64,000 bases of DNA from a virus, in the IMG/VR virus record IMGVR_UViG_3300009103_001698, positions 17,937 to 81,936 of that record; one strand, 5' to 3'. The position numbers and the translations under genes were made by a program. The notes beneath the pieces are model-generated. The model ran no database searches. It had not been told where the DNA came from and worked only from the letters and a program-made list of their open reading frames with translations. Positions 5,957 to 32,147 of the stretch are shown here, one piece after another (within the stretch, counting starts at the first letter, position 1; every line of letters starts with the position of its first letter).

Positions 5957-6961
5957 ATGATTGCAGATGTAGTTCTTGGTCTTCAGCACGGAGACGAAGG
6001 CAAAGGGAAAATTACGCACCATTTATGTAAAACTGGTGGGTATACTCATGTTATTCGTTTTAATGGTGGCTGTAACGCTGGTCATACAATTTATCACAAA
6101 GGTAAGAAGTTTGTTACTCACCACATTCCTGTAGGAGTGTTCTTTGGGGTTAAATCTATTATTGGTCCAGGTTGCGTTCTAAATCCAATACAGTTTTTAA
6201 AGGAACGTCAAGAACTTATTGACGGTGGAATAGATTTAGACGGATTGCTTTTTGTTGCCGAAAACACACACATTATTACTAGTGAGCATTTAGAAGAGGA
6301 CGGGAAAGATACAAAGATCGGCACAACAAAGAGAGGCAATGGACCAGCTTATAGAGACAAATACAATCGTTCAGGTTACATAGCAAAAAATGTCAACATT
6401 CTACAGCCTTATCTTATTAATATGTATGAAGCACTCCATGACAACAAGGAAAAAGAAGTTAAAATCCTCTTTGAGGGTGCTCAGGGTTTTGCTCTTGATA
6501 TTGATTGGGGTGATTATCCTTTTGTAACTTCCAGTCATTGTACAGTAGGTTCTGCTCTTCTAAATGGCGTTCCTCCGCAAGCTATTCGTAATGTTTGGGG
6601 TGTTGCCAAGATCTATGAGACATATGTCGGCGCAAAGAAGTTTGAGCCAGACATTCCTATTTTTAAGAGGATTAGAGAGGTTGGCGAAGAGTTTGGAGCA
6701 ACAACAGGACGTCCAAGACAGTGTAACTGGCTAAACTTCGAAATGCTGGATAAGGCAGTTAGAGTTAACGGCGTTAATAAGCTTATTTTCAACAAAATAG
6801 ATGTTCTTGACGAAATTGGGCAGTGGGCTCTAAAAAGTGAATCAGGTTATAAAGTTTTTAGTACTGGGCAACGGATGCAGGACTGGATTATAGAACAATT
6901 CAAGCGCAATGAATTCTTGGGAATAGAAGTTATTTTCTCAGGAGACAAAAACGGCATTTAG
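5957..6961 (+). CDS. purA: Adenylosuccinate synthetase (PurA family)
   Basis: Catalyses IMP + aspartate + GTP to adenylosuccinate, the first committed step to AMP. The family motifs are in order: GLQHGDEGKGK at residues 8-18 with catalytic Asp13, NAGHT with catalytic His43, IGTTKRGNGPAYRDK, LFEGAQGFALDIDWGDYPFV, TTGRPRQCNW (IMP/aspartate-binding loop) and NKIDVLD (guanine site). At 334 residues it matches the short archaeal-type enzymes (about 340) rather than the 430-residue bacterial form. PurZ, the phage enzyme for 2-aminoadenine DNA, replaces Asp13 with Ser or similar; here Asp is kept, so the substrate is more likely IMP than dGMP. It has its own sigma70-like promoter and stands alone among virion-type genes. 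It probably boosts adenine nucleotide supply during infection. Confidence 0.88.
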   Translation: MIADVVLGLQHGDEGKGKITHHLCKTGGYTHVIRFNGGCNAGHTIYHKGKKFVTHHIPVGVFFGVKSIIGPGCVLNPIQFLKERQELIDGGIDLDGLLFVAENTHIITSEHLEEDGKDTKIGTTKRGNGPAYRDKYNRSGYIAKNVNILQPYLINMYEALHDNKEKEVKILFEGAQGFALDIDWGDYPFVTSSHCTVGSALLNGVPPQAIRNVWGVAKIYETYVGAKKFEPDIPIFKRIREVGEEFGATTGRPRQCNWLNFEMLDKAVRVNGVNKLIFNKIDVLDEIGQWALKSESGYKVFSTGQRMQDWIIEQFKRNEFLGIEVIFSGDKNGI

Positions 6962-6978: not shown

Positions 6979-8130
6979 ATGCCTTGCTCCAAAATTACAA
7001 ACAATTCAAACTTCGAAGTAGACAAACATCAACCTATGTTTGACAGCTTCTTTCCTTATAGCCAAAAAGTTCTTGGTTTTGATAAGCCGTTTTCTTTAAA
7101 TTTTGCTTCAGATCAAGAAAATTCTGCTAATCCGTTAGGAAGGACAGCACATTATGACCCTTCCAGTTCTGAAATAACTATTTATGTAGATGGGCGGCAT
7201 ATAAAAGATATTATGCGGTCTATCTCTCACGAATTGGTTCATCACGCACAAAACTGTCGTGGTGAGTTTGATAAGGGGATTAGCACAGATGCTGGTTATG
7301 CTCAAGAAGACGGTCATCTGCGTGGAATGGAAAGAGAAGCGTATGAGAAGGGCAACTTGTGTTTTCGTGACTGGGAAGACCAGTATAAACAACTAAGGGA
7401 AAATAAAATGACTAAACTCGTTAAAAAAGAAATTAAGAAACTGTTGAAGGAGGCATATAACCCCTTGGATCCACAGTCGCGACCAGCTGCGGTGCCGTCA
7501 ATGGTTGATTCTCGCGAACAGAAGATGCTTTATGTTATTCGTAAAACTTCATGGGGTAAAAATTATACCGATGATTTTTGGAATGATTTTTCTGATAAAG
7601 AAAAACTTATGGTTTTTAAAAAAGCAAAAAAAGACTTAGCGGATCCACAGCCCAGCCCTGCTCCAAGAAAAAAGAAAAGACGCTTTCCTACTATTAGGGC
7701 GCCGATTGTTAAAGGGATACAGAGGGAACTATTAAAATTTTTTGGTGGAGTAACTGTTGGAGAATCAAAAGAATTAAATGAGCGCGATATAAGTGCGGCT
7801 GAAATCTTAGGAGGGAGAGGAAAAATCGATGGGGCACTCGGACCCACAACCTTTAAAAGCATCAAAAAAACACCTTGTGGAAAAGGTTTGTTTCTGGGTA
7901 ATCTTAAAGATGTCCTACCTAACATTCTTAAATGCTTACAAAAACAAAATGGAACAAAAGTAAAAAAACCAGTAGCTTCTAAGGCACCGGTGGATTATGG
8001 ACAATCAACACCTACAATTACATCTTTAGAAGAATCAAAAGTCGACTTCACCAATAAACATCTCGAACCGGTTAGAAAACGATTTTCAAAACTATTCGAA
8101 GCATTAGTTAAAAAAGGTAATAAAAAATGA
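6979..8130 (+). CDS. Zincin metallopeptidase-like virion protein
   Basis: A 383-residue protein. The N-terminal domain (1-150) carries HELVH (His84, Glu85, His88) within SISHELVHHAQNCRG and a downstream Glu in GMEREAYEKGN as the likely third zinc ligand. A basic helix MTKLVKKEIKKLLKEA follows, then a linker and a region near residues 270-300 (GKIDGALGPTTFKSIK) resembling part of a peptidoglycan-binding repeat. The LLKEA and SLEES sites resemble L-x-E prohead-protease sites. It overlaps the next gene by 4 nt. A role in cell-wall penetration or virion maturation is inferred. Because the internal MTKLVKK… Met begins a typical phage N-terminal helix, an old gene fusion is also possible. Confidence 0.55.
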   Translation: MPCSKITNNSNFEVDKHQPMFDSFFPYSQKVLGFDKPFSLNFASDQENSANPLGRTAHYDPSSSEITIYVDGRHIKDIMRSISHELVHHAQNCRGEFDKGISTDAGYAQEDGHLRGMEREAYEKGNLCFRDWEDQYKQLRENKMTKLVKKEIKKLLKEAYNPLDPQSRPAAVPSMVDSREQKMLYVIRKTSWGKNYTDDFWNDFSDKEKLMVFKKAKKDLADPQPSPAPRKKKRRFPTIRAPIVKGIQRELLKFFGGVTVGESKELNERDISAAEILGGRGKIDGALGPTTFKSIKKTPCGKGLFLGNLKDVLPNILKCLQKQNGTKVKKPVASKAPVDYGQSTPTITSLEESKVDFTNKHLEPVRKRFSKLFEALVKKGNKK

Positions 8131-9683
8131 GTAAAAGCTTTCATAAAGAACAAATAAAAAGATTTCTTTTAGAAGAGAAAATAGAGAAAGATGAGGAACC
8201 AGAACTTTTAAATGAAGCGTGGCCTCTGGTGGCCGCGATTGTAGCAGGTCTTGGCGCATTGGGATATGCAGGCTATGCAAATCGAGAACAATTTGACTAC
8301 AGTGCAAAATGGAAACGTAGAGTGGGGGCAGCGTACAAAAACCCAGAAGCTTTCGACAAGCTCCTAGATGACGCCTTGTTCGATAAATATACCTCTGACG
8401 CTTCAGCTAAAGCTGCCTTAGATGGAATAGCTGCTGCGATCGGCAGATGTAAACATAGTCGTACTAAAAAAGAAGGTGCTTACGACTCTTATGCTTATTG
8501 TAAACAAATAAAGAAAATTCTTAGAAAGCCCGGGAACAACCCCTTTATTGGAAACCCAGCAAAATATAGCAGAAAAAATATTGAAGATCAGTGGCACAAT
8601 GTTTCAGCAGTTCAAGACGATCTAAAAGACAAAATTTATACTGCACTGCCAAAACTTGCCAATTTTAAGCTTGGAGCACCACCGGAAGATGATGAAGATT
8701 TTGAAAAAGATGGACCAAAGGGCAGTAAAGGGCCAAGCTTTGGCAATCTGAAAAAAGCAAAAGGAGAAGTCATAGCTGTTTATGGGACGCGTTCTAAAGT
8801 TTTTGTGCCTGGGGTTTCAACTGATAGATTTGACTTGAAGCAGAGAATATTATTTAGTACCACGTTTAAAGATTCTTTTGAAGCACTAGCCAAAGGAAAG
8901 TGCGATCTTGGAAGTATGTATGATAAAAGCACAGATTCTTGTATACGCATCTCTCGTCCAGAACTGAAAATTAGTTCACACGTTGTTACAGCTCAACAAG
9001 TAGAAGGTGGAACAGAATTAATTGTTAACAAAGGAAAAAATTGGGGAATAAACATTGGAGCAAATGTCCGTTTCCCGGGAGCTTCAAGTTCATCTGGAAC
9101 CGGTAAAAGAGGCAGAACGGGCGGTGGAGTCAAATGTTCTTCTAAACTCCTAAAAAGAGGTTGTAGAGGTTCATTAGTTACAAAACTCCAAACAAGATTA
9201 AAACAATTAAATTATGATCTTGGGAAGTACGGTGTCGATGGTAAATACGGCGGAGCAACCGCCGGCGCTGTTTCAGCTTTTCAAAAAGATAGCGGTTTGG
9301 GAGTAGACGGTGTAGCAGGTAAGAATACATTAGCAGCATTGTTTAGTAAAGCGGCGACACAGAAAGCTAGCGTCCCTGCTGCTGACGTTGCTGATGCCGG
9401 ACCAAAAGCATCAAAAGTTGGAGGGGGCGTAGTTAGTCAGATTAAAGCGAAAGCAGATCGATTCATACAGACATACATTGATCGTGCCAGAAGAGAAGGA
9501 GTTTCTGATGATAAAATTTGGAACATTGTCAAAAACTATAACAAGACTAATGCTAAAGCAATCAACACTGCGCTCGAAAAAGTATCTTATCTAAAAGAAT
9601 CCAACATGAACAAGGTTCTCGCAGATCACAAAGAACAGGTTCTCGTTGAAAGGCTCGAAAAATTAACAAAAGGTCTTGTGTAG
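8127..9683 (+). CDS. Putative virion protein with a peptidoglycan-binding domain
   Basis: A 518-residue protein. It starts with a charged helix (HKEQIKRFLLEEKIEKDEE) and LLNEA near residue 30, an L-x-E-A site like those cut by T4 prohead protease. A hydrophobic stretch follows (WPLVAAIVAGLGALGYAGYA, about 31-50). Residues 346-406 match a PG_binding_1 domain (CRGSLVTKLQTRLKQL, then GVDGKYGGATAGAVSAFQKD and GVDGVAGKNTLAAL). The middle is low in recognisable domains, and the C-terminus is helical. The peptidoglycan-binding domain would anchor the protein to the cell wall during entry or lysis. It is coupled by overlap to the upstream metallopeptidase and precedes the ligase/NMNAT-like gene, suggesting a set of co-packaged proteins. 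Confidence 0.6.
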   Translation: MSKSFHKEQIKRFLLEEKIEKDEEPELLNEAWPLVAAIVAGLGALGYAGYANREQFDYSAKWKRRVGAAYKNPEAFDKLLDDALFDKYTSDASAKAALDGIAAAIGRCKHSRTKKEGAYDSYAYCKQIKKILRKPGNNPFIGNPAKYSRKNIEDQWHNVSAVQDDLKDKIYTALPKLANFKLGAPPEDDEDFEKDGPKGSKGPSFGNLKKAKGEVIAVYGTRSKVFVPGVSTDRFDLKQRILFSTTFKDSFEALAKGKCDLGSMYDKSTDSCIRISRPELKISSHVVTAQQVEGGTELIVNKGKNWGINIGANVRFPGASSSSGTGKRGRTGGGVKCSSKLLKRGCRGSLVTKLQTRLKQLNYDLGKYGVDGKYGGATAGAVSAFQKDSGLGVDGVAGKNTLAALFSKAATQKASVPAADVADAGPKASKVGGGVVSQIKAKADRFIQTYIDRARREGVSDDKIWNIVKNYNKTNAKAINTALEKVSYLKESNMNKVLADHKEQVLVERLEKLTKGLV

Positions 9684-9694
9684 AGGTCGATTAA

Positions 9695-12600
9695 ATGAAA
9701 ACAAAGTCCTTATTAAATGAAGGCGGTGTGGCAGGACATATGTCCCACCTCTATGATAATCCAGAACTCACTTTTGCGAAGATGAAAGAAATCTTTCATA
9801 AAGCCTCTGAAGGCGGATTACTTGGAACAGAAAAAACAGACGGTCAAAATCTCTTTATTACATACAACGTAAGAGAAGGCAAAGCAAAAGCAGCCAGAAA
9901 TAAAGGAAACATCAAGTCAGGTGGATTAGACGCTGCTGGTTTGGCTGCAAAGTTCAAAGATCGAGGAAACCTAGAAAAAGCATTCAACGACAGTTTCGCA
10001 GCATTCGAAGAATTCGCTTCCAGCTTAAAACCAGAAACACAAGTAAGGATCTTTGGAGAAGACGGAAACATTTATTACAACTCTGAAATCCAAGATCCTC
10101 TTTCTCCAAATGTAATACAATACGACGAAGCAACTTTGGTTATTCACGAAGTTGGACACGCCTACTTTAACAAAGAAACAGGCAGCGTAGAAGAAGTAGA
10201 CGTTACAGAAAATGCAAAAGCAATGCAGGCGGCTTTGGAAAATCGCTTTGATCCAAAAGACAGCAGATTTAGGGTTCAAAGGAATGCTATTGTTCAGCTT
10301 CAAGCTCTGTCCGATAAGGAGCCTTTGAAACGGGCATTAGCAGCCCTAGAAGCCGCTCTAAGCGCAGTAAATCTTCCCGACACATCAACAACGGGTGAAT
10401 ACCTTTTGGCGCGTTTAGAGCCCATTCTGAACGCAGAAGGTGTTTCTTTCAAAGAGGGTCAATACAAAATGCTGATCCAAAAGATTTTGGGGCACCCCGG
10501 GGTGTTTGTTCGCAATATCAAAAAGGGACACACACCGGAAGATCAGAAGAAAATTGCGGCTATGATCAAGAATGGTCCACGTTTCCTCAAAGACGCTATG
10601 CGTCCCATAGAAGAAATAGTTCATGAGTTCGCCACTGAAATGGTGAATGGTCTCCAAAGTGCTTTTGTGTTGGATAATACAAAAGAAGTTCAACGACTAA
10701 GAGGTAAACTTAAAAATGCTATTAGTGCTATTGAGGCAGCCGCTGATGAAGGAAACCTTGAAATCTTATCTCAGCAAATGGAAAAACTCAAGAACATCGA
10801 AAGTGTTGGAACAGCCGCAGAAGGTTTCGTATTCAATTTCGATGGTTATACATACAAATTTACCGGTAGTTTTGCCCCAATGAACCAAATCCTAGGTTTA
10901 TTCAAATACGGGCGAAAAGGCAAAGAAGCACTACCAGATTTATTCTTAGGTGATGACGCCACTAAGGGCGAGGCAGAGTTCCTTTACGGCGAACCTGAAC
11001 CTGAGAAACCTTATGTTAATGAGAAGCTGACAGGACCTAGTGATCATGTTACAATACTGTATCCGGGCGGTTTTAAGCCACCACACGCTGGTCATTTTGA
11101 ACTGGCAAAACGCTACGTTGAACACCCAAATGTTGAAAAAGTTATTATTATGCTTGGTCCGAAAGAAAGAACTTCGAGAGACAAGAAAGTTGTGATTGAT
11201 AAAGAAGCGTCTCTTTTCCTTTGGGGTAAATACAAAAACGCTCTCGGTGAGAAAGCCGTTATTGCTGACATGCCAGAAGAAGCAAAAGGTAATCCTATGA
11301 GGGCTGCTTATAAATGGGTTGAGAAATTCGCACAAGAAGGCGAAGTATTTGCACTTGCAGCCAGCGATAAAGACGCAGGAAGAGCAGAAGCTTTTGCTGA
11401 AGGTCATTGTCACCCATCCGGTAAATACTGTATTTCTGGTGTAGACGTTGTAGAACTGGCTGTTGAAACTCAAGCTATAGTTTATAAAAATAGAACTGAT
11501 GGTAATAATGATGCGAACATTAGTGCCTCTCAAATGAGAGAAGATTTAGCGGCTGGTGATAAAGAGAACTTCAAAACCAATTTACCACAAGAAGTCGCTG
11601 GTCAAGCCGATGCTATCTATGATTATCTCACAACTGGCGAAGAACAAGAGCCAGAAGTCCAAGATCAGAAGCCACACGATGTTATTGACCAAATGATAAA
11701 TGAAATTATTGCATGTAAAGGTTATAAAATCAAAATACATTCAGAAGAAGAACTAGAAGAGATGTCTTCTATGGCTGGTGGTTCTGTAGCAGGTTATGCC
11801 GGTGGTGGAAAGAAAAAAGGAAAAAAGCAAACTAATTACATTAGACGCGGACTCAAGGAAGATGCTATGAATTTAGAAGAACAAAAACTACGACAACTCA
11901 TTCGTAATAAACTTAAAAAGAGGGCAGTTATGCAAGAACAAGAAAAACTGGAAGAACAAAAGCTTCGTCAGCATATTCGAAAACTTATTATTCAAGAAGC
12001 TGCTGATGAAAATCCCACTCGTTCAACCGGAATTAATAAACTGGTCGGTACTCTTAAAATTATCCTCAAAACAATTGAGAGAGGTTATAAAGGATTGGCA
12101 ACAAGCTCTTCCCAGCGAGAATCTTATAAAAAGCACCTAATCAAAGCTATGATTGATACTCTTTCACCTCACGATGCTTTGATGAGTTTTAGTGCCGATG
12201 AAAGTGAAGAAGACGATTTAATGGCTGAACCTGACATGGCGTTACAAGAACTTAAAATGGATGTTGATGACGATCCTGTTGCTGATAGTCCTCTTGGCAT
12301 TGATCCAAGCGCAGCTGAAGGTGAAGAGTTAAAAACTCCTGCTGAAAAAGAAGCAGAAGCTGCCGCAGAGGAAGAAGAAGTCGCAGCTGCTGATAGAAAA
12401 AAGAAAGAAGGTTATAAAGATGTTGATGGCGGGGAACAATTGTTTCCTGAAATTCCTGGACTAGATCTTACTGGTAGAGATGAAGCCGTTGACATTTACA
12501 AAAAAGTTATTGATGCTGTGACGCGGCAATATGCCAGACTGCATGACGAAGACGATAGAAAGCATTATAAAGATTATCTCGTAACCAACCTATTGCTACA

Positions 12601-12769
12601 TTTTGACAAATGGGAAAATGATATTTCTGGAGAATTAGGCGATATCTCCACTCCAGAATACGAGAGGCAGAGCCAAGCAGCAGCTGAATATAGTCCAGGT
12701 GCTGAAGCTGAAGCTTTACAAGAAGCTATTACAAAGGCTATCATTGCCACGATTACAAAAAGTTCTTGA
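9695..12769 (+). CDS. Fusion of a ligase-like and an NMN-adenylyltransferase-like domain
   Basis: A 1024-residue protein. Residues 1-400 show motifs of covalent nucleotidyltransferases (ATP-dependent ligases): motif I as EKTDGQN with candidate nucleophile Lys47, FGED at 120-123 as motif III-like, EGFVF at 376 as motif IV and TYKF with Lys388 as motif V. A long helical insertion separates III and IV. Residues 450-650 form a HIGH-type nucleotidylyltransferase: GGFKPPHAGH (458-467) and ISASQMR (609-615), as in NMN adenylyltransferases and cytidylyltransferases. The C-terminal part has two EEQKLRQxIR repeats and a long acidic region. The N-terminal LLNEGG could be a prohead-protease site. It may act in RNA/DNA repair or NAD metabolism; both activities are inferred from motifs. 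Confidence 0.6.
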   Translation: MKTKSLLNEGGVAGHMSHLYDNPELTFAKMKEIFHKASEGGLLGTEKTDGQNLFITYNVREGKAKAARNKGNIKSGGLDAAGLAAKFKDRGNLEKAFNDSFAAFEEFASSLKPETQVRIFGEDGNIYYNSEIQDPLSPNVIQYDEATLVIHEVGHAYFNKETGSVEEVDVTENAKAMQAALENRFDPKDSRFRVQRNAIVQLQALSDKEPLKRALAALEAALSAVNLPDTSTTGEYLLARLEPILNAEGVSFKEGQYKMLIQKILGHPGVFVRNIKKGHTPEDQKKIAAMIKNGPRFLKDAMRPIEEIVHEFATEMVNGLQSAFVLDNTKEVQRLRGKLKNAISAIEAAADEGNLEILSQQMEKLKNIESVGTAAEGFVFNFDGYTYKFTGSFAPMNQILGLFKYGRKGKEALPDLFLGDDATKGEAEFLYGEPEPEKPYVNEKLTGPSDHVTILYPGGFKPPHAGHFELAKRYVEHPNVEKVIIMLGPKERTSRDKKVVIDKEASLFLWGKYKNALGEKAVIADMPEEAKGNPMRAAYKWVEKFAQEGEVFALAASDKDAGRAEAFAEGHCHPSGKYCISGVDVVELAVETQAIVYKNRTDGNNDANISASQMREDLAAGDKENFKTNLPQEVAGQADAIYDYLTTGEEQEPEVQDQKPHDVIDQMINEIIACKGYKIKIHSEEELEEMSSMAGGSVAGYAGGGKKKGKKQTNYIRRGLKEDAMNLEEQKLRQLIRNKLKKRAVMQEQEKLEEQKLRQHIRKLIIQEAADENPTRSTGINKLVGTLKIILKTIERGYKGLATSSSQRESYKKHLIKAMIDTLSPHDALMSFSADESEEDDLMAEPDMALQELKMDVDDDPVADSPLGIDPSAAEGEELKTPAEKEAEAAAEEEEVAAADRKKKEGYKDVDGGEQLFPEIPGLDLTGRDEAVDIYKKVIDAVTRQYARLHDEDDRKHYKDYLVTNLLLHFDKWENDISGELGDISTPEYERQSQAAAEYSPGAEAEALQEAITKAIIATITKSS
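11876..11979 (+). repeat. Tandem coding repeat, EEQKLRQxIR helix
   Basis: Two diverged 29-nt copies at 11876-11904 and 11951-11979 encode EEQKLRQLIR and EEQKLRQHIR, 75 nt apart and in frame. The repeated helix is followed in the second copy by IIQEA, an I-x-E-A site. Similar basic helices ending in L/I-x-E occur in the neighbouring proteins, so this may be a packaging or targeting element. Confidence 0.6.
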
Positions 12770-13640: not shown

Positions 13641-14327
13641 ATGCGAAAAAATAAAAGGTATTATTGGGCTAGCCAAGAAGAGATAAAGGGAGTAGAGCAA
13701 GAAGAGGGGTTTGAGGAGTTAACTCCGTCACAACAAGTTATGCTTTTGGACACAATAGGTGCCCAGCTTAATGCACCTCCTACCCCGAAAGATGATTTTA
13801 TAGAAGTTTCCAATAATAGAATTTATTTTTATTCCAGCATCCAAAGACGGAAGGTGATGGTTCTTAATAAAACTCTTCGTGAACTTTCTACAGACATCCG
13901 CCACAGTGCCACTATTTTAGAATCAACCCCAGCTAGTATTTTTCTTCACATCAACAGTCATGGTGGAGATTTGTTTACCGGTTTAGCAGCAGTTGACGAG
14001 ATTATCAAATGTGATGTTCCAATCACCTCTATTGTTGATGGTTGTGCTGCTTCTGCTGCTACTCTTATGAGTATTGTTGCCGATCATCGTCAAATTAATA
14101 AACACGCTTATATGCTAATACACCAGCTTTCTTCTGGAATGTGGGGTAAATACAGCGAGTTAAAAGACGAGATTGAAAATCTAGATAGATTAATGGAAAT
14201 GATTAAAAGCATTTATACAGAATACACAAAACTTCCACTAGACAAATTAGAGAAGATTTTGGAACATGACATTTGGTTTGATGCTGAAACTTGTCTTAAG
14301 TATGGGCTGGTTGATGAAATCATTTAA
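13641..14327 (+). CDS. ClpP-like serine protease
   Basis: A 228-residue member of the ClpP/S14 family with the catalytic triad: Ser138 in GCAASAATLM, His161 in MLIHQLSSG and Asp210 in HDIWFDAE, followed by YGLVDEII as in bacterial ClpP. The N-terminal 50 residues are extra compared with host ClpP, and the oxyanion-region glycines (HINSHGGDLFTG) are conserved. ClpP needs an AAA+ partner such as ClpX or ClpA to degrade folded proteins; none is seen in the window. Phage ClpP-like proteins may act as prohead proteases or in host protein turnover. It lies far from the virion genes here, so regulated proteolysis is as likely. A strong AAAGGAG precedes the start. Confidence 0.85.
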   Translation: MRKNKRYYWASQEEIKGVEQEEGFEELTPSQQVMLLDTIGAQLNAPPTPKDDFIEVSNNRIYFYSSIQRRKVMVLNKTLRELSTDIRHSATILESTPASIFLHINSHGGDLFTGLAAVDEIIKCDVPITSIVDGCAASAATLMSIVADHRQINKHAYMLIHQLSSGMWGKYSELKDEIENLDRLMEMIKSIYTEYTKLPLDKLEKILEHDIWFDAETCLKYGLVDEII

Positions 14328-14342
14328 CTGAGTGAACAAAAA

Positions 14343-15677
14343 ATGGCAAAGAAAACTTATGTTTTAGACACAAACGTTTATTTAACTGACTCATCGGCAA
14401 TAACTTCATACGGCTACAATGACATCGTAGTTCCAATAAAAGTTCTAGAAGAGATAGATAAACACAAGAAGCGACAAGATAGCGTCGGTGCTAATGCTCG
14501 TCGTGTTATTCGTTTTTTGGATGACCTTCGCGCAAAAGGAAATCTTCATAAAGGTGTCCGTATTGGAAAAGGAAAAGGAATAATCAAGGCAAGAAGCTTT
14601 GATCCAGAGATTCTTCCACCCGGGTATAATAAAGATGATCCAGATAACCAGATTTTAAGCACTGCTCTTACTGAAAAGGGCGATAACCCAAAAAGAAAAG
14701 TTGTTGTTGTTTCAAGAGACATTAACATGCGTGTCAAGTGTGATGCTCTGGGATTAGCCGGCGAGGATTACATTGTTGAAAAGCTTGTTAGCAGCCGCTC
14801 TGACATCTTTACCGGCGTCACCAAACACTTGGTCGACGATCAGATCATTGATCAATTTTATTCTGGTGAGGGTATCCTTTTAGATAAGGAAGAAGTTCGA
14901 TTGTGCCCAAACCAGTTCATAATGTTAATTTCTAACTCTAACGAAAAGAAAACAGCATTAGCTAGATTTCATAGTTATATGAAGCCGCTAACAAAGATAG
15001 TTGAATGTTATGATAATCGTTTCAAAATAAAGCCGAGAAACAAAGAACAAGAATTTGCCCTCAATCTTCTATTTGATCCAAAGGTTCAAGTAGTTACGCT
15101 CGTTGGAGCAGCTGGAACAGGAAAAACATTAATTGCTCTTTATTCTGGAATGTGTCAAACGTTAGATAACTGGAAAGGTGTAATACCAAAACAAGCAGAA
15201 TACGAAAGAATGATTATTTCTCGTCCTATTCAGCCGATGGGAAAGGATTTAGGTTATCTTCCAGGCTCATTAGAAGAAAAGATGTCTCCGTGGTTGTCAC
15301 CGATCAAAGATAATCTTCGTTTTTTGATGAACAATAAAAAAGATCAGTTAAAAGAATACGTAGAACAAGGCATAATAGAGGTAGAAGCACTTACATATAT
15401 TCGTGGAAGATCTGTTAATAACGCTTTCATTATTATTGATGAGATCCAAAACATGACCGTTCATGAATTAAAGACAGTTGTCACACGCGTTGGCGAAGGA
15501 TCGAAGATAGTTCTTATGGGTGATGTTGAGCAGATTGATAATGTTTATTTAGACGAGACAACCAATGGGTTAACCTACGCTGTAGAAAAATTCAAAACAC
15601 ATAACATTACAGGTCATGTTACATTAAAAAGAGGAGAAAGGTCAAAGGTCGCAACGTTGGCAGCCAAAATACTTTAG
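14343..15677 (+). CDS. PIN domain-PhoH ATPase fusion (PhoH2-like)
   Basis: A 444-residue two-domain protein. The N-terminal PIN domain begins YVLDTNVYLTD with further acidic residues in LEEIDKHKK and later DPDNQILS and SRDINMR, giving the usual cluster of metal-binding Asp/Glu of PIN ribonucleases. The C-terminal PhoH ATPase has Walker A GAAGTGKT (residues 255-262) and Walker B AFIIIDEIQNM with Asp366. PIN-PhoH proteins (PhoH2) from bacteria unwind and cut RNA using ATP. Most phage PhoH proteins have only the ATPase domain, so the full fusion is notable. It probably acts in RNA turnover during infection. The length matches bacterial PhoH2. Confidence 0.88.
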   Translation: MAKKTYVLDTNVYLTDSSAITSYGYNDIVVPIKVLEEIDKHKKRQDSVGANARRVIRFLDDLRAKGNLHKGVRIGKGKGIIKARSFDPEILPPGYNKDDPDNQILSTALTEKGDNPKRKVVVVSRDINMRVKCDALGLAGEDYIVEKLVSSRSDIFTGVTKHLVDDQIIDQFYSGEGILLDKEEVRLCPNQFIMLISNSNEKKTALARFHSYMKPLTKIVECYDNRFKIKPRNKEQEFALNLLFDPKVQVVTLVGAAGTGKTLIALYSGMCQTLDNWKGVIPKQAEYERMIISRPIQPMGKDLGYLPGSLEEKMSPWLSPIKDNLRFLMNNKKDQLKEYVEQGIIEVEALTYIRGRSVNNAFIIIDEIQNMTVHELKTVVTRVGEGSKIVLMGDVEQIDNVYLDETTNGLTYAVEKFKTHNITGHVTLKRGERSKVATLAAKIL

Positions 15678-17732: not shown

Positions 17733-19270
17733 GGAAAAAATGAACGAAGAAAAGATCAAAATCTTTACGATTTCAGATATGCCGTTAGTGACTTAGCGGC
17801 AGTAAAATTGGGTGAATTGCTGGAAACCCCTCAGAGTCAAATAAACCACAACATAATTGGAAACGATAAGTGTGAAGGTTAGAAAATTATTTGAATTGGA
17901 CAATCAGCAGCCAAGCTCCTGTTTAGAAATAATGGAGAAGGTTCAGAGACTACGGTAAGCCTAAGTTGTTAATATGGTGATAATCCGACAGCGCCCAACA
18001 CTCATGAGAGTGATGATATAGTCCGACTGTTTATGAAAGTAAATAGGTTTTTGTAAGTCCATCTGGAGTAGGCACCCAGACTCGATACGTTATTGAAGGT
18101 TTGTTGAAGACCGGTAAATACAAATTTGTTTCTCTAGGAGGGGCAATCAAACACCAACAATACCAACCAGTCAAAACAGAAGAGTGGGGAGATGATTGGG
18201 TTATTTATCCAGTTGATGGGTTTGGAAACCCAGATGTTATTAGATCTATTATCAGAAATGAAAAACCAGCACTTCTTTGGTTTATGACAGATCCTCGCTT
18301 TTATGAATGGCTCTGGGCGATAGAAGATGAGATTCGACCATTGATGCCAATGGTTTATTATCACGTTTGGGACAACTATCCTTATCCAGTTTTCAATCGT
18401 AAGTTTTATCTTTCCAATGATTTCATAGCCACTATTTCAAAGGTTACAGACGACTTTGTAAAAACAGTAGCACCAGAGGTTGAACGAGAATATGTTCCAC
18501 ACGCTGTCGACTCAGAAGTTTTTAAACGCCTAACAGACGAAGAAATGTTACATTATAAAGGTAAACACTTTGGAGCCGGCGATAAAAAAGTTACTTTCTT
18601 CTGGAATAATAGAAACGCTCGTAGGAAACAAAGTGGATCATTAGTTTGGTGGTTCAAAGAATTTCTTGATCAAGTCGGACACGACAAAGCAAGACTGATT
18701 ATGCATACTGATCCAAAGGATCCTAATGGACCAGATTTGGAAGCGTATGTACATGAACTTGGGCTTACCAATGGTGAGATTATGTTTTCAAAAGCAAAAG
18801 TTCAACCACAAGATCTGGCTGTGATGTATAACATCGCTGACTGCGTTATTAACATTTCAGACGCAGAAGGCTTTGGACTTGCTACTTTGGAAGCATTGTC
18901 TTGTGAGACACCTATTATTGTTAGTATGACCGGCGGACTTCAAGAGCAGGTTACTGATGGCAAAGATTGGTTTGGTGTTGGTCTTGAACCAGCTAGTAAA
19001 GCTGTAATCGGTTCACAACAAGTTCCCTTCATTTATGAGGACAGGGTTGCCAAAGAGGATTTCCTTGCTGCGATGCATAAAATCTACAAGATGACCGACA
19101 AACAACGTCATAAACTTGGAAAGAAGGGTCGTAAGCATGTAGAAAAGAATTACAACTTTGAGAACTTTCACAAGTCTTGGAATCGTATTATTGCTAAAAC
19201 ACTAGAAAAGCACGGCTCTTGGAGCACTCGTAAGGAACACAAGGCATGGACGCTTAAGGAGGCAGCATGA
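17725..19270 (+). CDS. GT4-family glycosyltransferase, split by a group I intron
   Basis: The gene is join(17725..17785, 18054..19270), giving 425 residues after splicing. Exon 1 encodes 20 residues ending ISDMP plus one base; exon 2 resumes LSPSGVGTQTRYVIEGL, restoring the Gly-rich N-terminal motif of GT-B glycosyltransferases. The C-terminal half has EGFGLATLEA (E-x7-E), the donor-sugar phosphate-binding signature of GT4. The unspliced frame stops after 23 codons (TAG at 17794-17796). A ribosome-binding site GGAGAGG (17714-17720) precedes ATG 17725. It transfers sugars from nucleotide donors, probably to a surface glycan, and it heads the 21-kb glycan cluster. The next gene overlaps by ATGA. 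Confidence 0.9.
17786..18053 (+). ncRNA. Group I self-splicing intron, 268 nt, no internal ORF
   Basis: The core is visible. P1 pairs exon TGCCGT (17780-17785) with guide GCGGCA (17796-17801), ending in the required U-G pair at the 5' splice site. P10 pairs exon 2 TAAG (18054-18057) with CTTA (17792-17795) directly next to the guide. The intron ends in G (18053). P4 pairs TGCTG (17818-17822) with CAGCA (17905-17909); P6 CTCC (17916-17919) with GGAG (17934-17937); P7 GACTA (17948-17952) with TAGTC (18019-18023); and a P8-like hairpin CACTC-ATGA-GAGTG spans 17999-18012. GATATAGTCC is a hallmark of T4-type group I introns. Splicing restores the glycosyltransferase frame exactly. With no homing gene inside, mobility would need help in trans. 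Confidence 0.93.
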
Positions 19271-20526
19271 AAAAGAAAGTATTGATTCAGGGACCAATTC
19301 TAACACAATCTGGTTACGGCGAACACGCTCGTTTAGTTTATAGAGCACTTAAATCCAAAGAAGATCTATTTGAGGTTTATGTAAACCCTATTAACTGGGG
19401 TAAAACATCTTGGCTTTGGGAAGACACACAAGAACGAAGAGACATCGACGCCTGTATTGCTAAAACACAGATTTATGGACAACAGAGGGGTCAATTTGAT
19501 ATTGCTATGCTTGTAACTATTCCAACTGAATGGGAGCAATACAGAGCAGCCCCAATCAATATTGGCGTTACGGCAGGAATTGAGTCAAATAAGGTTGCTC
19601 CGAAATGGCTGGAAGCAGCTAATCGTTTTGTTGATAAAATTATTGTACCATCAGAATTTGCGAAGAAAACATACGGTGACACAACTTATCAAGGTAAGGA
19701 TCAAAATGGTAATGATGCTATTTTGAAGCTGGAAAAGACAATCGATGTTGTAAACTACCCAATCAAAAAACTCGAAGAAGTAGATCTAGGAATCAAACTA
19801 GACTATGATTTTAACTTTCTAACAGTCGCTCAATGGGGACCAAGAAAGAATGTTGAGAACACTATTCGCTGGTTTGTGGAAGAATTTATTGATCAAGAAA
19901 TTGGTTTGGTTCTCAAAATCAACAGAGCAAATAACTCCATTATTGATAAAGAAGCAGTTGAAAACGGTGTCAATGCTCTTCTCAAAGAATACCCAAATCG
20001 AAAATGTAAGGTCTATGTTCTTCACGGCTACATGACTGAATCTGAATTACATTCACTTTATAAACATCAACAAGTCAAATGTCTATTATCGTTAACACAC
20101 GGAGAAGGCTTTGGCTTACCTTTGTTCGAAGCAGCTTACAGCGGGCTTCCTATCATTACTCACGACTGGGGCGGACAAACTGATTTCTTGTTACACGAGG
20201 TCAAAAACAAAAAGAAGACAAGAACAAGAATGCTCTGTGGCAAAGTTGACTACGATCTTAATCCAATCCAGAAAGAAGCTGTCTGGGACGGAGTACTTCA
20301 AGCAGACAGTCTTTGGGCTTTTCCTAAACAGGGTAGCTGCAAAATGAAGATGCGAGAGATGGTTAAGGACTATGGTCGCTACTGGGCTCAAGCGAAGAAG
20401 CTAAAGAATATGCTGGAAGAGGATTTCTCAGAAGAAAAGATTTATGAGAAGATGGCTGAAACTCTTAGTCCATATGTTCAAGTCGATGAAGAAATAGAGA
20501 AGTTGTTTAATGAAATTACCTTATGA
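19267..20526 (+). CDS. GT4-family glycosyltransferase
   Basis: A 419-residue GT-B fold enzyme. The N-terminus IQGPILTQSGYGEHARLVY has the Gly-rich acceptor-side motif. The C-terminal domain has WGPRKNVENTIRWFVEEF (domain-start motif) and HGEGFGLPLFEAAYSGLP (E-x7-E nucleotide-sugar site). The length is normal for the family. It starts on ATGA overlapping the previous glycosyltransferase, and the next gene overlaps it again, so the three are translationally coupled. The sugar donor is not predictable. It probably acts in the cytoplasm on a glycan intermediate or protein acceptor. Confidence 0.88.
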   Translation: MKKKVLIQGPILTQSGYGEHARLVYRALKSKEDLFEVYVNPINWGKTSWLWEDTQERRDIDACIAKTQIYGQQRGQFDIAMLVTIPTEWEQYRAAPINIGVTAGIESNKVAPKWLEAANRFVDKIIVPSEFAKKTYGDTTYQGKDQNGNDAILKLEKTIDVVNYPIKKLEEVDLGIKLDYDFNFLTVAQWGPRKNVENTIRWFVEEFIDQEIGLVLKINRANNSIIDKEAVENGVNALLKEYPNRKCKVYVLHGYMTESELHSLYKHQQVKCLLSLTHGEGFGLPLFEAAYSGLPIITHDWGGQTDFLLHEVKNKKKTRTRMLCGKVDYDLNPIQKEAVWDGVLQADSLWAFPKQGSCKMKMREMVKDYGRYWAQAKKLKNMLEEDFSEEKIYEKMAETLSPYVQVDEEIEKLFNEITL

Positions 20527-22118
20527 TAGTATTTGTTAGTGATTATTTTTCTAACCAAATAACTGGCGGCGCCGAACTAACCTCTGATGCTTTATTGGAA
20601 GCCAGATTATCACCAGTTATTTGTATTAATTCTCAGAATATTGCTTCACAAACAATAAATCAGTTTAAAGACAGCCGGTGGATACTTGGTAACTTCTCTA
20701 TGATACCTGATAATTTTCTATTAGAGATCATTAAAAATGTTAAAGATTATTCTGTAATAGAATACGACTACAAGTATTGTAAATACCGTTCAACTCACAA
20801 ACACATAGAAGCAGAGGGTATCTGCGAATGTGAAAAATCCAGCCATGGCAAGTTGATTTCTATTTTGATGGCAAAAGCTAGGAATGTATTTTGGATGTCT
20901 GAAAAACAAAAGAATGAGTATATTAAAGTACTTCCTTTTCTTAACAAAGCTAATAATGTAGTGTTGAGTTCTTCTTTCTCAAAAGAAAGCCTATTATACA
21001 TTAAATCTTTAGATGTGTCAAATAAAAATAATAAATTTTTAATTTTAGAGTCTGGTTCGTGGATAAAAGGAACACAAGATTGCGTATCCCACGCACAAGA
21101 ACACAATTTAGAATACGAATTGATTTCTGGCTTATCACATAAAGATTTGTTGAATAAGCTAGCAGAATCGAAGGGTCTTATTTTTCTCCCAAAAGGGTTA
21201 GACACCTGCCCCAGAATTGTAATAGAAGCAAAGATGTTGGGCTGTGAATTGATTTTAAATGATAATGTACAACACAAAGATGAAAAATGGTTTCATGAAA
21301 ACATACCTGAGTTTGTGGAGAAACAAAAGAAATTGTTTTTTGATAAATGCCTCGATCTAAAATATATTGATAAAAAGAAAGATGAAGAAACTAAATTTCA
21401 TTTTATTGTCCCGGCTTATAATGCTGAACAGTTTATCAATACAACCTTAAGAAGCATTAAATGGCAAGATTATGAAAATTTTAAAGTAACAGTTGTAGAT
21501 GATCTGTCCTCTGACAGAACCTATGATGTAGTAAAAACGGAAACAGATCCTAGATTTAGTGTAATAAAACCTAAAGAAAAGAATTATGCCCTCAAAAACA
21601 TTTGTTTAGCAATTGACAAAATCCAACCAGATGATGAAGATGTAATGTTGGTTGTGGATGGAGATGACTGGTTAGCATCAACGGATGTGTTGAATTATCT
21701 AAATAAAATCTATTCTGAAGAGGACGTCCTTTTGACGTATGGCAGCTATGAAGAAAATACAACTGGAAGAAGAGGGGTAGAACCATCAGAATATCCGCAA
21801 GAGGTTATTCGAACAAACACGTTTCGCAAAGATAGGTGGAGGGCATCTCACTTGAGAACCTTTAAATACAAACTTTGGAAAGAGATCAACCAAGAAGATT
21901 TTTTAGATGAAGATGATAACTTTTATACATCAGCATACGATCAGGCGATAATGTTACCTATGCTTGAAATGGCAGGATCTAAAACTAAGTTCATTCCTGA
22001 AATTCTTCATGTCTACAACAAGGGAAACCCACTCCATCACAGCGGAGAGAAAGAAAAACGTCAATACGAAACAATGTTGAGAATAAGAAAGAAATCCCCC
22101 TATGAACGGAAATTTTAA
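20523..22118 (+). CDS. Two-domain glycosyltransferase (GT-B-like plus GT2)
   Basis: A 531-residue protein. Residues 1-280 resemble a GT-B enzyme (start MIVFVSDYFSNQITGGAELT; later FLPKGLDTCPRIVIEAKMLG in place of the E-x7-E loop). From about residue 292 a GT2 (GT-A) domain begins: HFIVPAYNAEQFINTTLRSI, TVVDDLSSDRT and VVDGDDW near 378-383, the D-x-D metal site. The C-terminal part (SAYDQAIMLPMLE) fits the GT2 acceptor region. Two fused transferases could add two sugars in turn. The first domain lacks a clear first Glu of E-x7-E and may be weak or have a different donor. Confidence 0.8.
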   Translation: MIVFVSDYFSNQITGGAELTSDALLEARLSPVICINSQNIASQTINQFKDSRWILGNFSMIPDNFLLEIIKNVKDYSVIEYDYKYCKYRSTHKHIEAEGICECEKSSHGKLISILMAKARNVFWMSEKQKNEYIKVLPFLNKANNVVLSSSFSKESLLYIKSLDVSNKNNKFLILESGSWIKGTQDCVSHAQEHNLEYELISGLSHKDLLNKLAESKGLIFLPKGLDTCPRIVIEAKMLGCELILNDNVQHKDEKWFHENIPEFVEKQKKLFFDKCLDLKYIDKKKDEETKFHFIVPAYNAEQFINTTLRSIKWQDYENFKVTVVDDLSSDRTYDVVKTETDPRFSVIKPKEKNYALKNICLAIDKIQPDDEDVMLVVDGDDWLASTDVLNYLNKIYSEEDVLLTYGSYEENTTGRRGVEPSEYPQEVIRTNTFRKDRWRASHLRTFKYKLWKEINQEDFLDEDDNFYTSAYDQAIMLPMLEMAGSKTKFIPEILHVYNKGNPLHHSGEKEKRQYETMLRIRKKSPYERKF

Positions 22119-22999
22119 TGAAAATAAGATTAGAAAATGTTAATTTGAACAGCAGTTCTGGTCCAAACTCTTTCGCGCAAAAGCTGGTCAAATACCTTCA
22201 AAAGAATGAGCACAGCTTGGTTCAAGAGAGTTATGATGCTGTGCTGTGTTTTATCGAAGCACATAATAATTTGGACAACAGTAAATTATTTCAGAGATTG
22301 GATGGCATTTATTTTAATACTGATTTCGATTATAAAGCACAGAACAGCAACATTCTTAACACTTATAAACGAGCAAAAGGTGTAATTTTCCAATCAGAGT
22401 TCAACAAAGAACTGACGTTTCGTTATTTTGGGGAGCATAAAAATTATGCCATTATTCATAATGGTTCTGATCTGGAGCTAATAGGGGACATTAAACCTAC
22501 ATCAAACGAGCTTCTAAATAAATACGAAAACGTTTGGAGTTGTGCTTCGTCTTGGAGATCACATAAAAGATTAAAAGATAATGTAAGGTACTTTTTAGAA
22601 CACCAAGGCCCAAACGATTGTTTTGTTATAGCAGGAAATCCAGATTATCACGTTAAAGAACCAAACATATTTTATGTTGGAGAATTGGATTATAACAAGC
22701 TTATTTCGCTCTACAAACGAAGTAAATTTTTTATTCATCTATCTTGGTTGGATCACTGTCCTAACGTTGTAGTCGACGCTAGAGCCTCTGGCTGTCAAAT
22801 TATTTGTAGTAGCGCCGGCGGTACCAAAGAAATCGCTGGATTAGACGCTGTAGTAATTCAAGAACCAGAATGGAACTTTGAACCTACTAGATTATACGAT
22901 CCACCTCCAATGGATTTTTCCAATAAGGTTAAAAATAACCATGACTCATGTTATGATATGGTGGCAGTATCAAAAAAATACATTGAGTTTATGAGATGA
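22118..22999 (+). CDS. GT-B-like glycosyltransferase (short)
   Basis: A 293-residue protein with glycosyltransferase features: start IRLENVNLNSSSGPNSFAQK (Gly/Ser-rich acceptor motif), GVIFQSEFNKEL and NGSDLELIG between domains, CASSWRSHKRL at the second domain start, and DHCPNVVVDARASGCQIICS near the nucleotide-sugar site. Asp replaces the second Glu of E-x7-E. It is shorter than typical GT4 enzymes (about 370), as is its relative at 25614. Gene overlaps on both sides are consistent with an operon. Confidence 0.75.
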   Translation: MKIRLENVNLNSSSGPNSFAQKLVKYLQKNEHSLVQESYDAVLCFIEAHNNLDNSKLFQRLDGIYFNTDFDYKAQNSNILNTYKRAKGVIFQSEFNKELTFRYFGEHKNYAIIHNGSDLELIGDIKPTSNELLNKYENVWSCASSWRSHKRLKDNVRYFLEHQGPNDCFVIAGNPDYHVKEPNIFYVGELDYNKLISLYKRSKFFIHLSWLDHCPNVVVDARASGCQIICSSAGGTKEIAGLDAVVIQEPEWNFEPTRLYDPPPMDFSNKVKNNHDSCYDMVAVSKKYIEFMR

Positions 23000-23913
23000 A
23001 ATTTTATTTATCCGTCGCAAACGAAAATTGGATTTGTGACCGGCTGGCGAGAGAGTGGAGTGAGAATTCTACAACTGTAGGCAGCCCGTCAGATGCAGAT
23101 ATTATTTGGATTTTTAGTCCATATATCTGGAGGAGTATTCCCACTAGCTTATTAGATAGTAAAGTGGTTTGTCTGACGATACATCACATCACGCCGTGGA
23201 AATTTACAAGAGATTCTATAAGAGAGTTTTTAGAGAGAGATAAGTATGTTAATTTTTATCATGTTCCCTGTGAAAAAACCAAAACAATTGTTAATAAAAT
23301 GACAAAGAAACCAATTTTTGTTCAACCTTTTTGGGTAAATCAAAACCTTTGGCAAGATCTTGACAAAGATGAAACCAGAGAACAACTCAACATACCAAAG
23401 GAATTATTTTTGGTCGGTTCATTTCAGCGAGACACAGAGGGTCACGATCTAAAATCACCAAAATTAGAAAAAGGCCCGGACATTTTTTGTGATATAGTGG
23501 AAAAACTTTATGAAACAAACAAGAACTTGAAAGTAGTTTTATCGGGACTAAGAAGACAATACGTAAAACAAAGACTTGAAAACGCTGGAATAGAATACAT
23601 TTATTATGAATTAACAGATTTTGAAACATTGAATAAGTTGTATAACGTGTTGGATCTTTATATTGTTTCTTCTAGATGTGAGGGTGGACCTCAAGCAATT
23701 GTCGAAGCTGCAATTACAAAAACCCCCATTGTGTCGACCGACGTTGGGATAGCATCACAGATTTTGTCCAGTGACAGCATCTATCAAGACCTTGATGATT
23801 TCTTTGATAGTAAAGCAGACGTAGATTATGCCTTCGAGGAGATTCAGAAATACTTAATTCCTCAAGGATTAGAGAGTTTCAGAAAGGAGTTTACAGGTGT
23901 TAACAAAGTCTGA
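22996..23913 (+). CDS. GT-B-family glycosyltransferase
   Basis: A 305-residue protein whose C-terminal half carries the GT4 signature RCEGGPQAIVEAAITKTPIV (E-x7-E), preceded by LVGSFQRDTEG (domain start) and NVLDLYIVSSR. The N-terminal domain is compact (SPSDADIIWIFSPYIW, LTIHHITPWK). It overlaps both neighbours. Acceptor and donor are unknown; it presumably acts in series with the preceding transferases on one glycan. Confidence 0.8.
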   Translation: MKFYLSVANENWICDRLAREWSENSTTVGSPSDADIIWIFSPYIWRSIPTSLLDSKVVCLTIHHITPWKFTRDSIREFLERDKYVNFYHVPCEKTKTIVNKMTKKPIFVQPFWVNQNLWQDLDKDETREQLNIPKELFLVGSFQRDTEGHDLKSPKLEKGPDIFCDIVEKLYETNKNLKVVLSGLRRQYVKQRLENAGIEYIYYELTDFETLNKLYNVLDLYIVSSRCEGGPQAIVEAAITKTPIVSTDVGIASQILSSDSIYQDLDDFFDSKADVDYAFEEIQKYLIPQGLESFRKEFTGVNKV

Positions 23914-32146: not shown

Positions 32147-32147
32147 A

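What the first reader, a model, noticed from the sequence alone, without database searches (positions are those of the whole stretch)
9695..12769. One phage protein joining a ligase-like and an NMNAT-like domain
Residues 1-400 show an ordered set of covalent nucleotidyltransferase motifs (K47-TDG, FGED, E376-G, K388) with a 250-residue insertion, and residues 450-650 carry GGFKPPHAGH and ISASQMR of an NMN-adenylyltransferase-like domain. NMNAT-type enzymes make NAD and dinucleotides; ligases form AMP intermediates. Together they could repair RNA, modify RNA 5' ends with NAD, or work as a NAD-linked ligase. A possible prohead-protease site near the N-terminus suggests it is packaged and injected.
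Basis: partly seen in the sequence, partly recalled or inferred. Interest (0 to 1): 0.75.

Follow-up and report, generated by a model that had tools for sequence, protein, structure and literature searches.

The report
Phage head enzyme: ligase-like plus adenylyltransferase
A phage gene joins an RNA-ligase-like enzyme to a second enzyme of the NAD/CoA-making type, apparently as cargo of the virus head that is cut free by the head protease; the same undescribed pair occurs in hundreds of marine and freshwater phages, so a large orphan family gets a testable function.

Summary
The two-domain protein is real. Residues ~10-410 fold as a covalent nucleotidyltransferase (model pLDDT 93); nearly all credible PDB matches are RNA/DNA ligases or capping enzymes. 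K47, D49, G50, R68, E376 and K388 are invariant in 59 non-redundant relatives. Residues ~450-650 are a HIGH-superfamily adenylyltransferase, equally close to PPAT, NadD and NadM, so 'NMNAT' is not established. At least 581 viral-contig stretches encode the ligase-like domain. It is fused before or after the second domain, or encoded next to it; only a few relatives carry it alone. A remote counterpart is the cyanophage pair DUF6267 (T4-GC71) + 'cytidylyltransferase' (T4-GC190), adjacent in 143/144 loci, fused in S-PM2; T4-GC190 has been detected in virions. A T4-gp21-type cleavage site ([LI]-x-E|GG) precedes the ligase-like domain at the N-terminus and also internally in the reversed fusions; 17/24 related records encode that protease. 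Best reading: head-packaged, protease-released, injected nucleotidyltransferases, most likely for RNA-end repair. NAD-linked function is weakened by lack of NadV in 22/23 records. Chemistry is untested; motif V lacks its second lysine.

The parts
9695..9721 (+). Residues 1-9, leader MKTKSLLNE ending in a T4-gp21-type site (L-N-E|G)
   Evidence: [LI]xE directly before GG in 37 of 45 non-redundant relatives that have residues upstream; background 1.2% per position; residues 1-10 have pLDDT <50
9722..10924 (+). Ligase-like covalent nucleotidyltransferase domain, residues 10-410
   Evidence: AlphaFold model pLDDT 93.3, pTM 0.90; best PDB matches are ligases/capping enzymes; 59-sequence alignment
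9737..9748 (+). H15-x-x-H18, family-specific motif, also in DUF6267 (HLEH)
   Evidence: invariant; H..H(22-45)K.DG in 85/85 family members, 105/105 DUF6267 and 2/3372 other ORFs
9830..9844 (+). Motif I, E46-K47-T-D49-G50 (K47 = predicted AMP-accepting lysine)
   Evidence: E46, K47, D49, G50 in 59/59
9896..9898 (+). R68, invariant arginine after motif I (ARNKG)
   Evidence: 59/59
10085..10087 (+). E131, motif-III-type glutamate (corrects FGED)
   Evidence: 58/59 (Asp once); on strand 126-133
10205..10789 (+). Mostly helical insertion between motifs III and IV, residues ~171-365
   Evidence: DSSP of the model
10820..10831 (+). Motif IV, E376-G-F-V379
   Evidence: E376 and V379 59/59; G377 55/59
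10856..10858 (+). Motif V lysine K388 (YKFTG; the second Lys of K-x-K is T390)
   Evidence: K388 59/59; position 390 T 54, A 4, V 1
10925..11044 (+). Low-confidence linker with VNE443; many relatives have an [LIV]xE tripeptide here
   Evidence: pLDDT <50 for residues 416-449; linker list
11045..11644 (+). HIGH-superfamily adenylyltransferase (NMNAT/PPAT-like) domain, residues 451-650
   Evidence: VIA Z 13.8 PPAT, 13.0 NadD, 12.6 NadM; Foldseek 2qjo NadM E 4e-4; Pfam PF01467 below cut-off, E 0.0046; phrog_395 E 4e-6
11063..11095 (+). PGGFKPPHAGH, HIGH-type nucleotide-binding motif
   Evidence: GxFxP element in every ligase-first fusion examined
11519..11539 (+). ISASQMR, second signature of the HIGH-superfamily domain
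   Evidence: [ILMV]S[AG][ST]xxR-type match in most relatives
11762..12766 (+). C-terminal module, residues 690-1024 (MSSMAGG element, then helical/acidic region)
   Evidence: separate gene directly downstream in about a dozen relatives, fused in others; L-E-E|M and I-Q-E|A tripeptides
8127..9683 (+). Upstream 518-aa peptidoglycan-binding-domain protein, also with an L-N-E|A site at residue 30
   Evidence: PG_binding_1 E 2e-16; N-terminus
6979..8130 (+). Conserved upstream neighbour of unknown function
   Evidence: its cluster is found upstream in 15 of 31 ligase-first loci

Best explanation
The gene encodes cargo for the phage head: a short capsid-targeting-type leader, an RNA-ligase-like covalent nucleotidyltransferase, a HIGH-superfamily adenylyltransferase and a C-terminal helical module. 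The gp21-type prohead protease probably cuts after [LI]-x-E, removing the leader (mature N-terminus GGVAGHM...) and possibly separating the enzymes inside the head; they are then ejected with the DNA. In the cell the first enzyme would take AMP onto K47 from ATP (or a dinucleotide) and pass it to a 5'-phosphate, most likely to seal RNA broken by host anticodon nucleases at the start of infection. The second enzyme would adenylylate a phosphorylated small molecule. Shown computationally: folds, invariant active-site residues, the association of the domains, conserved cleavage-type sites, protease in relatives. Published: virion presence of the cyanophage counterpart of the second domain. Inferred: packaging and cleavage in this phage, ejection, and RNA as the substrate.
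For: Folds. Invariant catalytic residues. Weak Pfam RNA_ligase (PF09414) match in two members, E 3.6e-4 (L037) and 9e-3 (L033). Association: ligase-first fusions, reversed fusions in Mel-JY01, LR756508 and many contigs, adjacent genes in LR756500 and in the cyanophage DUF6267 + GC190 pair (143/144), fused in S-PM2. Packaging: [LI]xE|GG before the ligase-like domain, terminal or internal; PF03420 protease in 17/24 records, 0/14 controls; [LI]xE[AGS] within the first 25 residues of 81/90 cyanophage adenylyltransferases vs 15/223 control ORFs; terminase and T4-type portal genes downstream in reversed-fusion loci; T4-GC190 detected in S-SM1 virions (PMC3037559) and a cytidylyltransferase in S-CREM2 virions (PMC10665884); gp21 motif L/I-X-E (PMC9026906); Alt cut at ITE and LTE (PMC5694885). 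A Zeta/AAA_33 P-loop kinase with its own LNE|G leader lies directly upstream in 5 reversed-fusion loci.
Against: No biochemistry exists. Motif V has K-x-T instead of the ligase K-x-K, and the fold ends about 20 residues after it, so no separate RNA-binding C-terminal domain is evident. Structural scores to PDB ligases are moderate (VIA Z up to 9.2; Foldseek E 0.01). Substrate (RNA, DNA, protein) is unassigned. In 14 ligase-first or ligase-only relatives the protein starts directly at MGG without a leader, so the N-terminal signal is not universal. The window contig itself has no PF03420 match, but it is an 82-kb fragment.
Confidence: 0.45

Rival explanations
1. NAD module: the second domain makes NAD+ from NMN and the ligase-like domain uses NAD+ as AMP donor (releasing NMN that is recycled), or the protein simply restores NAD+ after host NADase defence.
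For: The second domain has the NMNAT/PPAT fold; weak NMNAT matches in NCBIfam, far below cut-off; NAD salvage is common in large phages (PMC9503650).
Against: Phage NadM always co-occurs with NadV (PMC9503650), but NadV was found in 1 of 23 related records. PPAT fits as well as NMNAT. At least one relative on a 211-kb contig carries the ligase-like domain with no PF01467 match on that contig, so the domains are not obligately coupled. No NAD-ligase Ia domain was recognised.
Confidence: 0.15
2. 5'-end capping: the protein modifies RNA 5' ends, either leaving AppRNA as product or joining NMN or another phosphorylated cofactor to an adenylylated end.
For: RNA ligases form AppRNA; NMNATs have been proposed, without proof, as NAD-capping enzymes (PMC8131947). 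A capping-enzyme structure is among the matches (1ckm). Lack of the second motif V lysine could fit arrested or different chemistry (inference).
Against: E. coli NadD and NadR showed no RNA capping or decapping in tests reported in PMC8131947. No RNA-triphosphate-specific feature was found. RNA ligases match better than capping enzymes.
Confidence: 0.12
3. Morphogenesis or scaffold role: the ligase fold serves virion assembly, as T4 Rnl1 (gp63) also promotes tail-fibre attachment, and the enzymes are passengers.
For: Structural-gene neighbourhood; C-terminal helical/acidic module; BFVD matches include RnlA-type 'RNA ligase and tail fiber attachment' proteins.
Against: All predicted catalytic residues are invariant in 59 diverse relatives, and the HIGH motif is widely kept.
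Confidence: 0.12
4. Nucleotidylation of a host protein or sealing of DNA ends of the injected genome rather than RNA.
For: DNA ligases are among the PDB matches, and injected head proteins of T4 such as Alt modify host proteins (PMC9503650).
Against: RNA ligases score above DNA ligases (Z 9.2-8.2 vs about 7 or lower); no OB fold or DNA-binding domain was recognised.
Confidence: 0.12

Closest known systems
Cyanophage pair T4-GC71 (DUF6267, PF19782) and T4-GC190 ('cytitidyltransferase'); fused as S-PM2d138 (CFW42325.1)
   Same: Ligase-motif protein (HLEH, KWDG, EGFV, K) directly before a HIGH-superfamily domain; fused in the same order in S-PM2. Foldseek against viral models puts a 591-aa S-PM2 'Cytidyltransferase-like' protein (A0A0M6VVW4; length equal to S-PM2d138) at E 4.7e-5 to the ligase-like domain.
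   Different: Whole-profile comparison is weak (hhalign E 0.024; motif IV-V region alone E 4e-4); the first gene has no LxE leader (2/105); no C-terminal module recognised.
RNA ligases: Naegleria Rnl, T4 Rnl1, TbREL1, T4 Rnl2
   Same: Fold core and motif I, III and IV residues plus one motif V lysine; VIA Z 9.2, 8.5, 8.4, 8.2.
   Different: About 195-residue helical insertion between motifs III and IV; K-x-T in motif V; no additional C-terminal domain; family-specific GGxxGHxxH start; fused HIGH domain.
NadM, NadD, PPAT (HIGH-superfamily adenylyltransferases); phage NatV/NadM
   Same: Fold and HIGH and SxxxxR signatures.
   Different: Partner is ligase-like rather than Nudix or kinase; NadV rarely present; substrate unknown.
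T4 internal head proteins (IPI-III, Alt) with capsid targeting sequence
   Same: Short N-terminal leader ending in L/I-x-E|G (MKTKSLLNE|GG), gp21-type protease in relatives, late-gene setting.
   Different: Virion presence of this protein untested; enzyme fusion with possible internal cleavage sites has no T4 counterpart that I know of.
Microcystis phage Mel-JY01 WWT39297.1
   Same: Isolated phage with both domains, 639 aa, annotated only as cytidylyltransferase.
   Different: Reversed domain order; cleavage-type site (IAE|GG) lies inside, between the domains.

Membership tests
Covalent nucleotidyltransferase superfamily (ligases, capping enzymes) | Motif I K-x-D-G with invariant lysine | tested here: met
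   59/59
Covalent nucleotidyltransferase superfamily (ligases, capping enzymes) | Motif III glutamate | tested here: met
   E131, 58/59, on a strand after motif I
Covalent nucleotidyltransferase superfamily (ligases, capping enzymes) | Motif IV E-G-x-V | tested here: met
   E376 and V379 59/59
Covalent nucleotidyltransferase superfamily (ligases, capping enzymes) | Motif V K-x-K | tested here: not met
   First Lys K388 59/59; the second is T390 (T 54, A 4, V 1)
Covalent nucleotidyltransferase superfamily (ligases, capping enzymes) | Nucleotidyltransferase fold | tested here: met
   Model pLDDT 93; nearly all credible PDB matches are ligases or capping enzymes; VIA Z up to 9.2, moderate
Covalent nucleotidyltransferase superfamily (ligases, capping enzymes) | Lysyl-AMP or lysyl-GMP formation | not testable with these tools
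   Needs an adenylylation assay with a K47A control
RNA ligase Rnl2-type (PF09414) | Match to the family model above its cut-off | tested here: not met
   No match for the window protein; sub-threshold matches in L037 (E 3.6e-4) and L033 (E 9e-3)
RNA ligase Rnl2-type (PF09414) | Sealing of 5'-P/3'-OH RNA | not testable with these tools
   Assay needed
HIGH-superfamily adenylyltransferase | Fold plus (H/T)xGH-type and SxxxxR signatures | tested here: met
   Z 13.8-12.5 to PPAT/NadD/NadM; motifs
NMN adenylyltransferase (NadM/NadR/NadD) | NMN specificity or equivalog-level model match | tested here: inconclusive
   Only partial NCBIfam matches, 16-18 bits vs cut-offs of 112-240; PPAT equally close
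gp21-processed internal head protein (T4 CTS type) | N-terminal L/I-x-E cleavage site, conserved | tested here: met
   LNE|GG here; [LI]xE in 37/45 relatives with upstream residues
gp21-processed internal head protein (T4 CTS type) | Gp21-type protease encoded by the phage | tested here: inconclusive
   17/24 related records yes; the window contig (fragment) no
gp21-processed internal head protein (T4 CTS type) | Presence in the virion | not testable with these tools
   Reported for cyanophage T4-GC190 (PMC3037559, PMC10665884), not for this protein
DUF6267 (T4-GC71) | Match to PF19782 | tested here: not met
   No match of the window protein to PF19782 at E<=1
DUF6267 (T4-GC71) | Shared HxxH...KxDG start, EG-V/K end and HIGH-domain partner | tested here: met
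   Pattern 85/85, 105/105 vs 2/3372 others; 143/144 next to HIGH gene; remote relation, profile score weak

The most novel reading that the evidence does not exclude
The two domains act in sequence as a head-delivered RNA 5'-end modifying system: the HIGH domain makes a dinucleotide or uses an adenylylated RNA end, and the ligase-like domain with its altered motif V transfers rather than seals, giving a dedicated post-transcriptional cofactor-capping enzyme; cyanophage core genes GC71 (DUF6267) and GC190 would be the same system.
Probability: 0.07. Interest if true: 0.95.

Novelty: new variant of a known kind. Interest (0 to 1): 0.62.

Why it matters
A family with at least 581 viral-contig matches, and probably the cyanophage core genes T4-GC71 and T4-GC190 (T4-GC71 homologues in 470 phage records), has been annotated only as 'cytidylyltransferase' or 'hypothetical'. 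Recognising it as a conserved ligase-like plus adenylyltransferase pair with head-protease sites gives a testable function to virion cargo of abundant marine phages, and would extend head-delivered enzymes beyond T4 Alt. Cultured phages (S-PM2, Mel-JY01) carry it, so the question can be tested directly.

Tried and rejected
FGED as motif III: rejected, E122 not conserved. PDB sequence searches with the protein and with the 4-row profile found no relatives; the low-E coiled-coil and LRR matches are spurious. 'NMNAT' as an assignment: not accepted, PPAT/NadD/NadM tie. NAD salvage with NadV: NadV in 1/23 records. HMMER profile of the family against cyanophage neighbours gave nothing significant, and hhalign against DUF6267 was weak, so that link rests on synteny, fusion in S-PM2, the HxxH...KxDG pattern and a Foldseek viral match. 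T4 late promoter TATAAATA: 10 found vs 6 expected, none upstream of the ORF on its strand. Cellular origin: a scan of the genome collection gave 8 relatives, all in metagenome-assembled genomes and mostly on short contigs, plausibly phage DNA. Pattern scan with the window protein alone found one close relative only. Library searches for Mel-JY01 and DUF6267 found no paper.
Full report
1. Observation. The 1024-aa frame at 9695-12769 is intact, on an 82-kb virus fragment. Pfam sees only a sub-threshold cytidylyltransferase-like match and PHROGs a weak match to phrog_395; the ligase-like half of the window protein matches no Pfam or PHROG model.

2. Family. tblastn on phage records found the ligase-like half in Mel-JY01 and two huge-phage genomes, and the second half in Lak phages. 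A profile scan of viral contigs gave at least 581 related stretches; the best 80 loci were kept. All 85 proteins examined have the predicted active-site motifs. Among 59 non-redundant ones E46, K47, D49, G50, R68, E376, V379, F380, K388, G391, N397 and Q398 are invariant; E131 is conserved in 58.

3. Architecture. In ligase-first proteins the HIGH-superfamily domain follows. In the others the order is reversed, as in Mel-JY01 and LR756508. In LR756500 the domains are adjacent genes. A few relatives have the ligase-like domain without a fused partner; for one of them, on a 211-kb contig, no PF01467 match was found anywhere on the contig. Fusion in both orders plus adjacency is strong evidence of functional linkage, although not obligatory linkage. 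The window protein has a third, separable C-terminal module that is the next gene in about a dozen relatives.

4. Structure. Model of 1-660: pLDDT 84; model of the ligase-like domain with 56 sequences: pLDDT 93.3, pTM 0.90. The second domain matches PPAT (Z 13.8), NadD (13.0) and NadM (12.6); these are close enough that the substrate is open. The ligase-like domain matches RNA ligases best (Naegleria Rnl Z 9.2, T4 Rnl1 8.5, TbREL1 8.4, T4 Rnl2 8.2), then tRNA ligases, archaeal RNA ligases, DNA ligases and capping enzymes. The scores are moderate, but the credible matches are of one superfamily and the motifs fall in the expected order. Differences: a helical insertion at 171-365, K-x-T in motif V, and no further C-terminal domain.

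5. Remote relatives in cultured phages. Foldseek against viral models returned a 591-aa S-PM2 'cytidyltransferase-like' protein (A0A0M6VVW4). S-PM2d138, also 591 aa, is DUF6267 (residues 4-401) fused to a HIGH domain (407-589). In cyanophages DUF6267 (T4-GC71) lies immediately before the HIGH-domain gene (T4-GC190) in 143 of 144 loci. DUF6267 shares H..H(22-45)K.DG with our family (105/105 and 85/85; 2 of 3372 other ORFs) and an EG-V/K end, but whole-profile comparison is weak. I treat DUF6267 as a probable remote member, not as proven. Stenotrophomonas phage Moby shows a further KMDG...EGVI protein directly before a HIGH-domain gene.

6. Packaging. T4 gp21 cleaves after L/I-x-E (PMC9026906); Alt is cut at ITE and LTE (PMC5694885). 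Here MKTKSLLNE|GG fits, and [LI]xE sits exactly before GG in 37 of 45 relatives with upstream residues (background 1.2% per position), including 23 in which the site is internal, between the two enzymes. The remaining N-terminal cases mostly start directly at MGG. In L067, L081 and L085 the E is replaced by M preceded by an AAGGAG- or AAAGGGG-type sequence that could allow internal initiation. The free GG start therefore seems to be kept by different routes (inference). Gp21-type protease (PF03420) is in 17/24 related records and none of 14 control genomes. In cyanophages 81/90 HIGH-domain proteins have [LI]xE[AGS] within 25 residues vs 15/223 control ORFs. T4-GC190 was detected in S-SM1 virions (PMC3037559) and a cytidylyltransferase in S-CREM2 virions (PMC10665884), whose authors caution that carry-over is possible.

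7. Function. RNA-end repair on entry is my preferred reading: RNA-ligase-like fold, injected setting, known need of phages to repair cleaved tRNAs (PMC7824862, PMC9503650), and a P-loop kinase of the Zeta/AAA_33 type with its own LNE|G leader directly upstream in five reversed-fusion loci. NAD-linked schemes are weaker because NadV is absent from 22/23 records. The altered motif V is a genuine caution: the domain might transfer AMP without sealing.

8. Verdict. A real, conserved, unrecognised family; architecture and folds are well supported, head packaging is likely, chemistry is unknown.

Noticed in passing
window 5957-6961: Adenylosuccinate-synthetase-like protein (Pfam E 7e-84); closer to PurA models than to PurZ (NCBIfam 285 vs 120 bits, all below cut-off), so not clearly a Z-genome enzyme.
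   Followed up: partly
window 31310-35087: Nonulosonic-acid-type cluster: NeuB/PseI-like synthase, PseF-like cytidylyltransferase and an aminotransferase; glycosyltransferases at 18101-23913.
   Followed up: partly
window 13641-15677: ClpP-like protease followed by a PIN-PhoH protein; also found downstream in several ligase-first loci.
   Followed up: partly
L003 4480-7227: The LR756508 fusion carries an N-terminal ParB_N-like domain before the HIGH and ligase-like domains; Moby has a small ParB-like gene near its pair.
   Followed up: no
window 11741-11800 and 13 relatives: Conserved [LIVM][ED]E-[MVILA]S[SAG]... element (LEEMSSMAGGSVAGYAGG) after the HIGH domain, possibly another cleavage site.
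   Followed up: partly
L067, L081, L085: M-GG in place of E-GG before the ligase-like domain with Shine-Dalgarno-like sequence upstream: possible internal translation start.
   Followed up: partly
L056 8394-11129: Terminase large-subunit ORF with intein/Hint and LAGLIDADG-like matches.
   Followed up: no
L005 5986-6609: Lak megaphages encode a standalone HIGH-domain protein related to this one.
   Followed up: no
L261 1399-2313 and L262 1026-2805: In older annotations DUF6267 (T4-GC71) is split or truncated (S-MbCM6, S-PM2), whereas the S-PM2d record has one 591-aa frame joining DUF6267 to the HIGH domain.
   Followed up: partly
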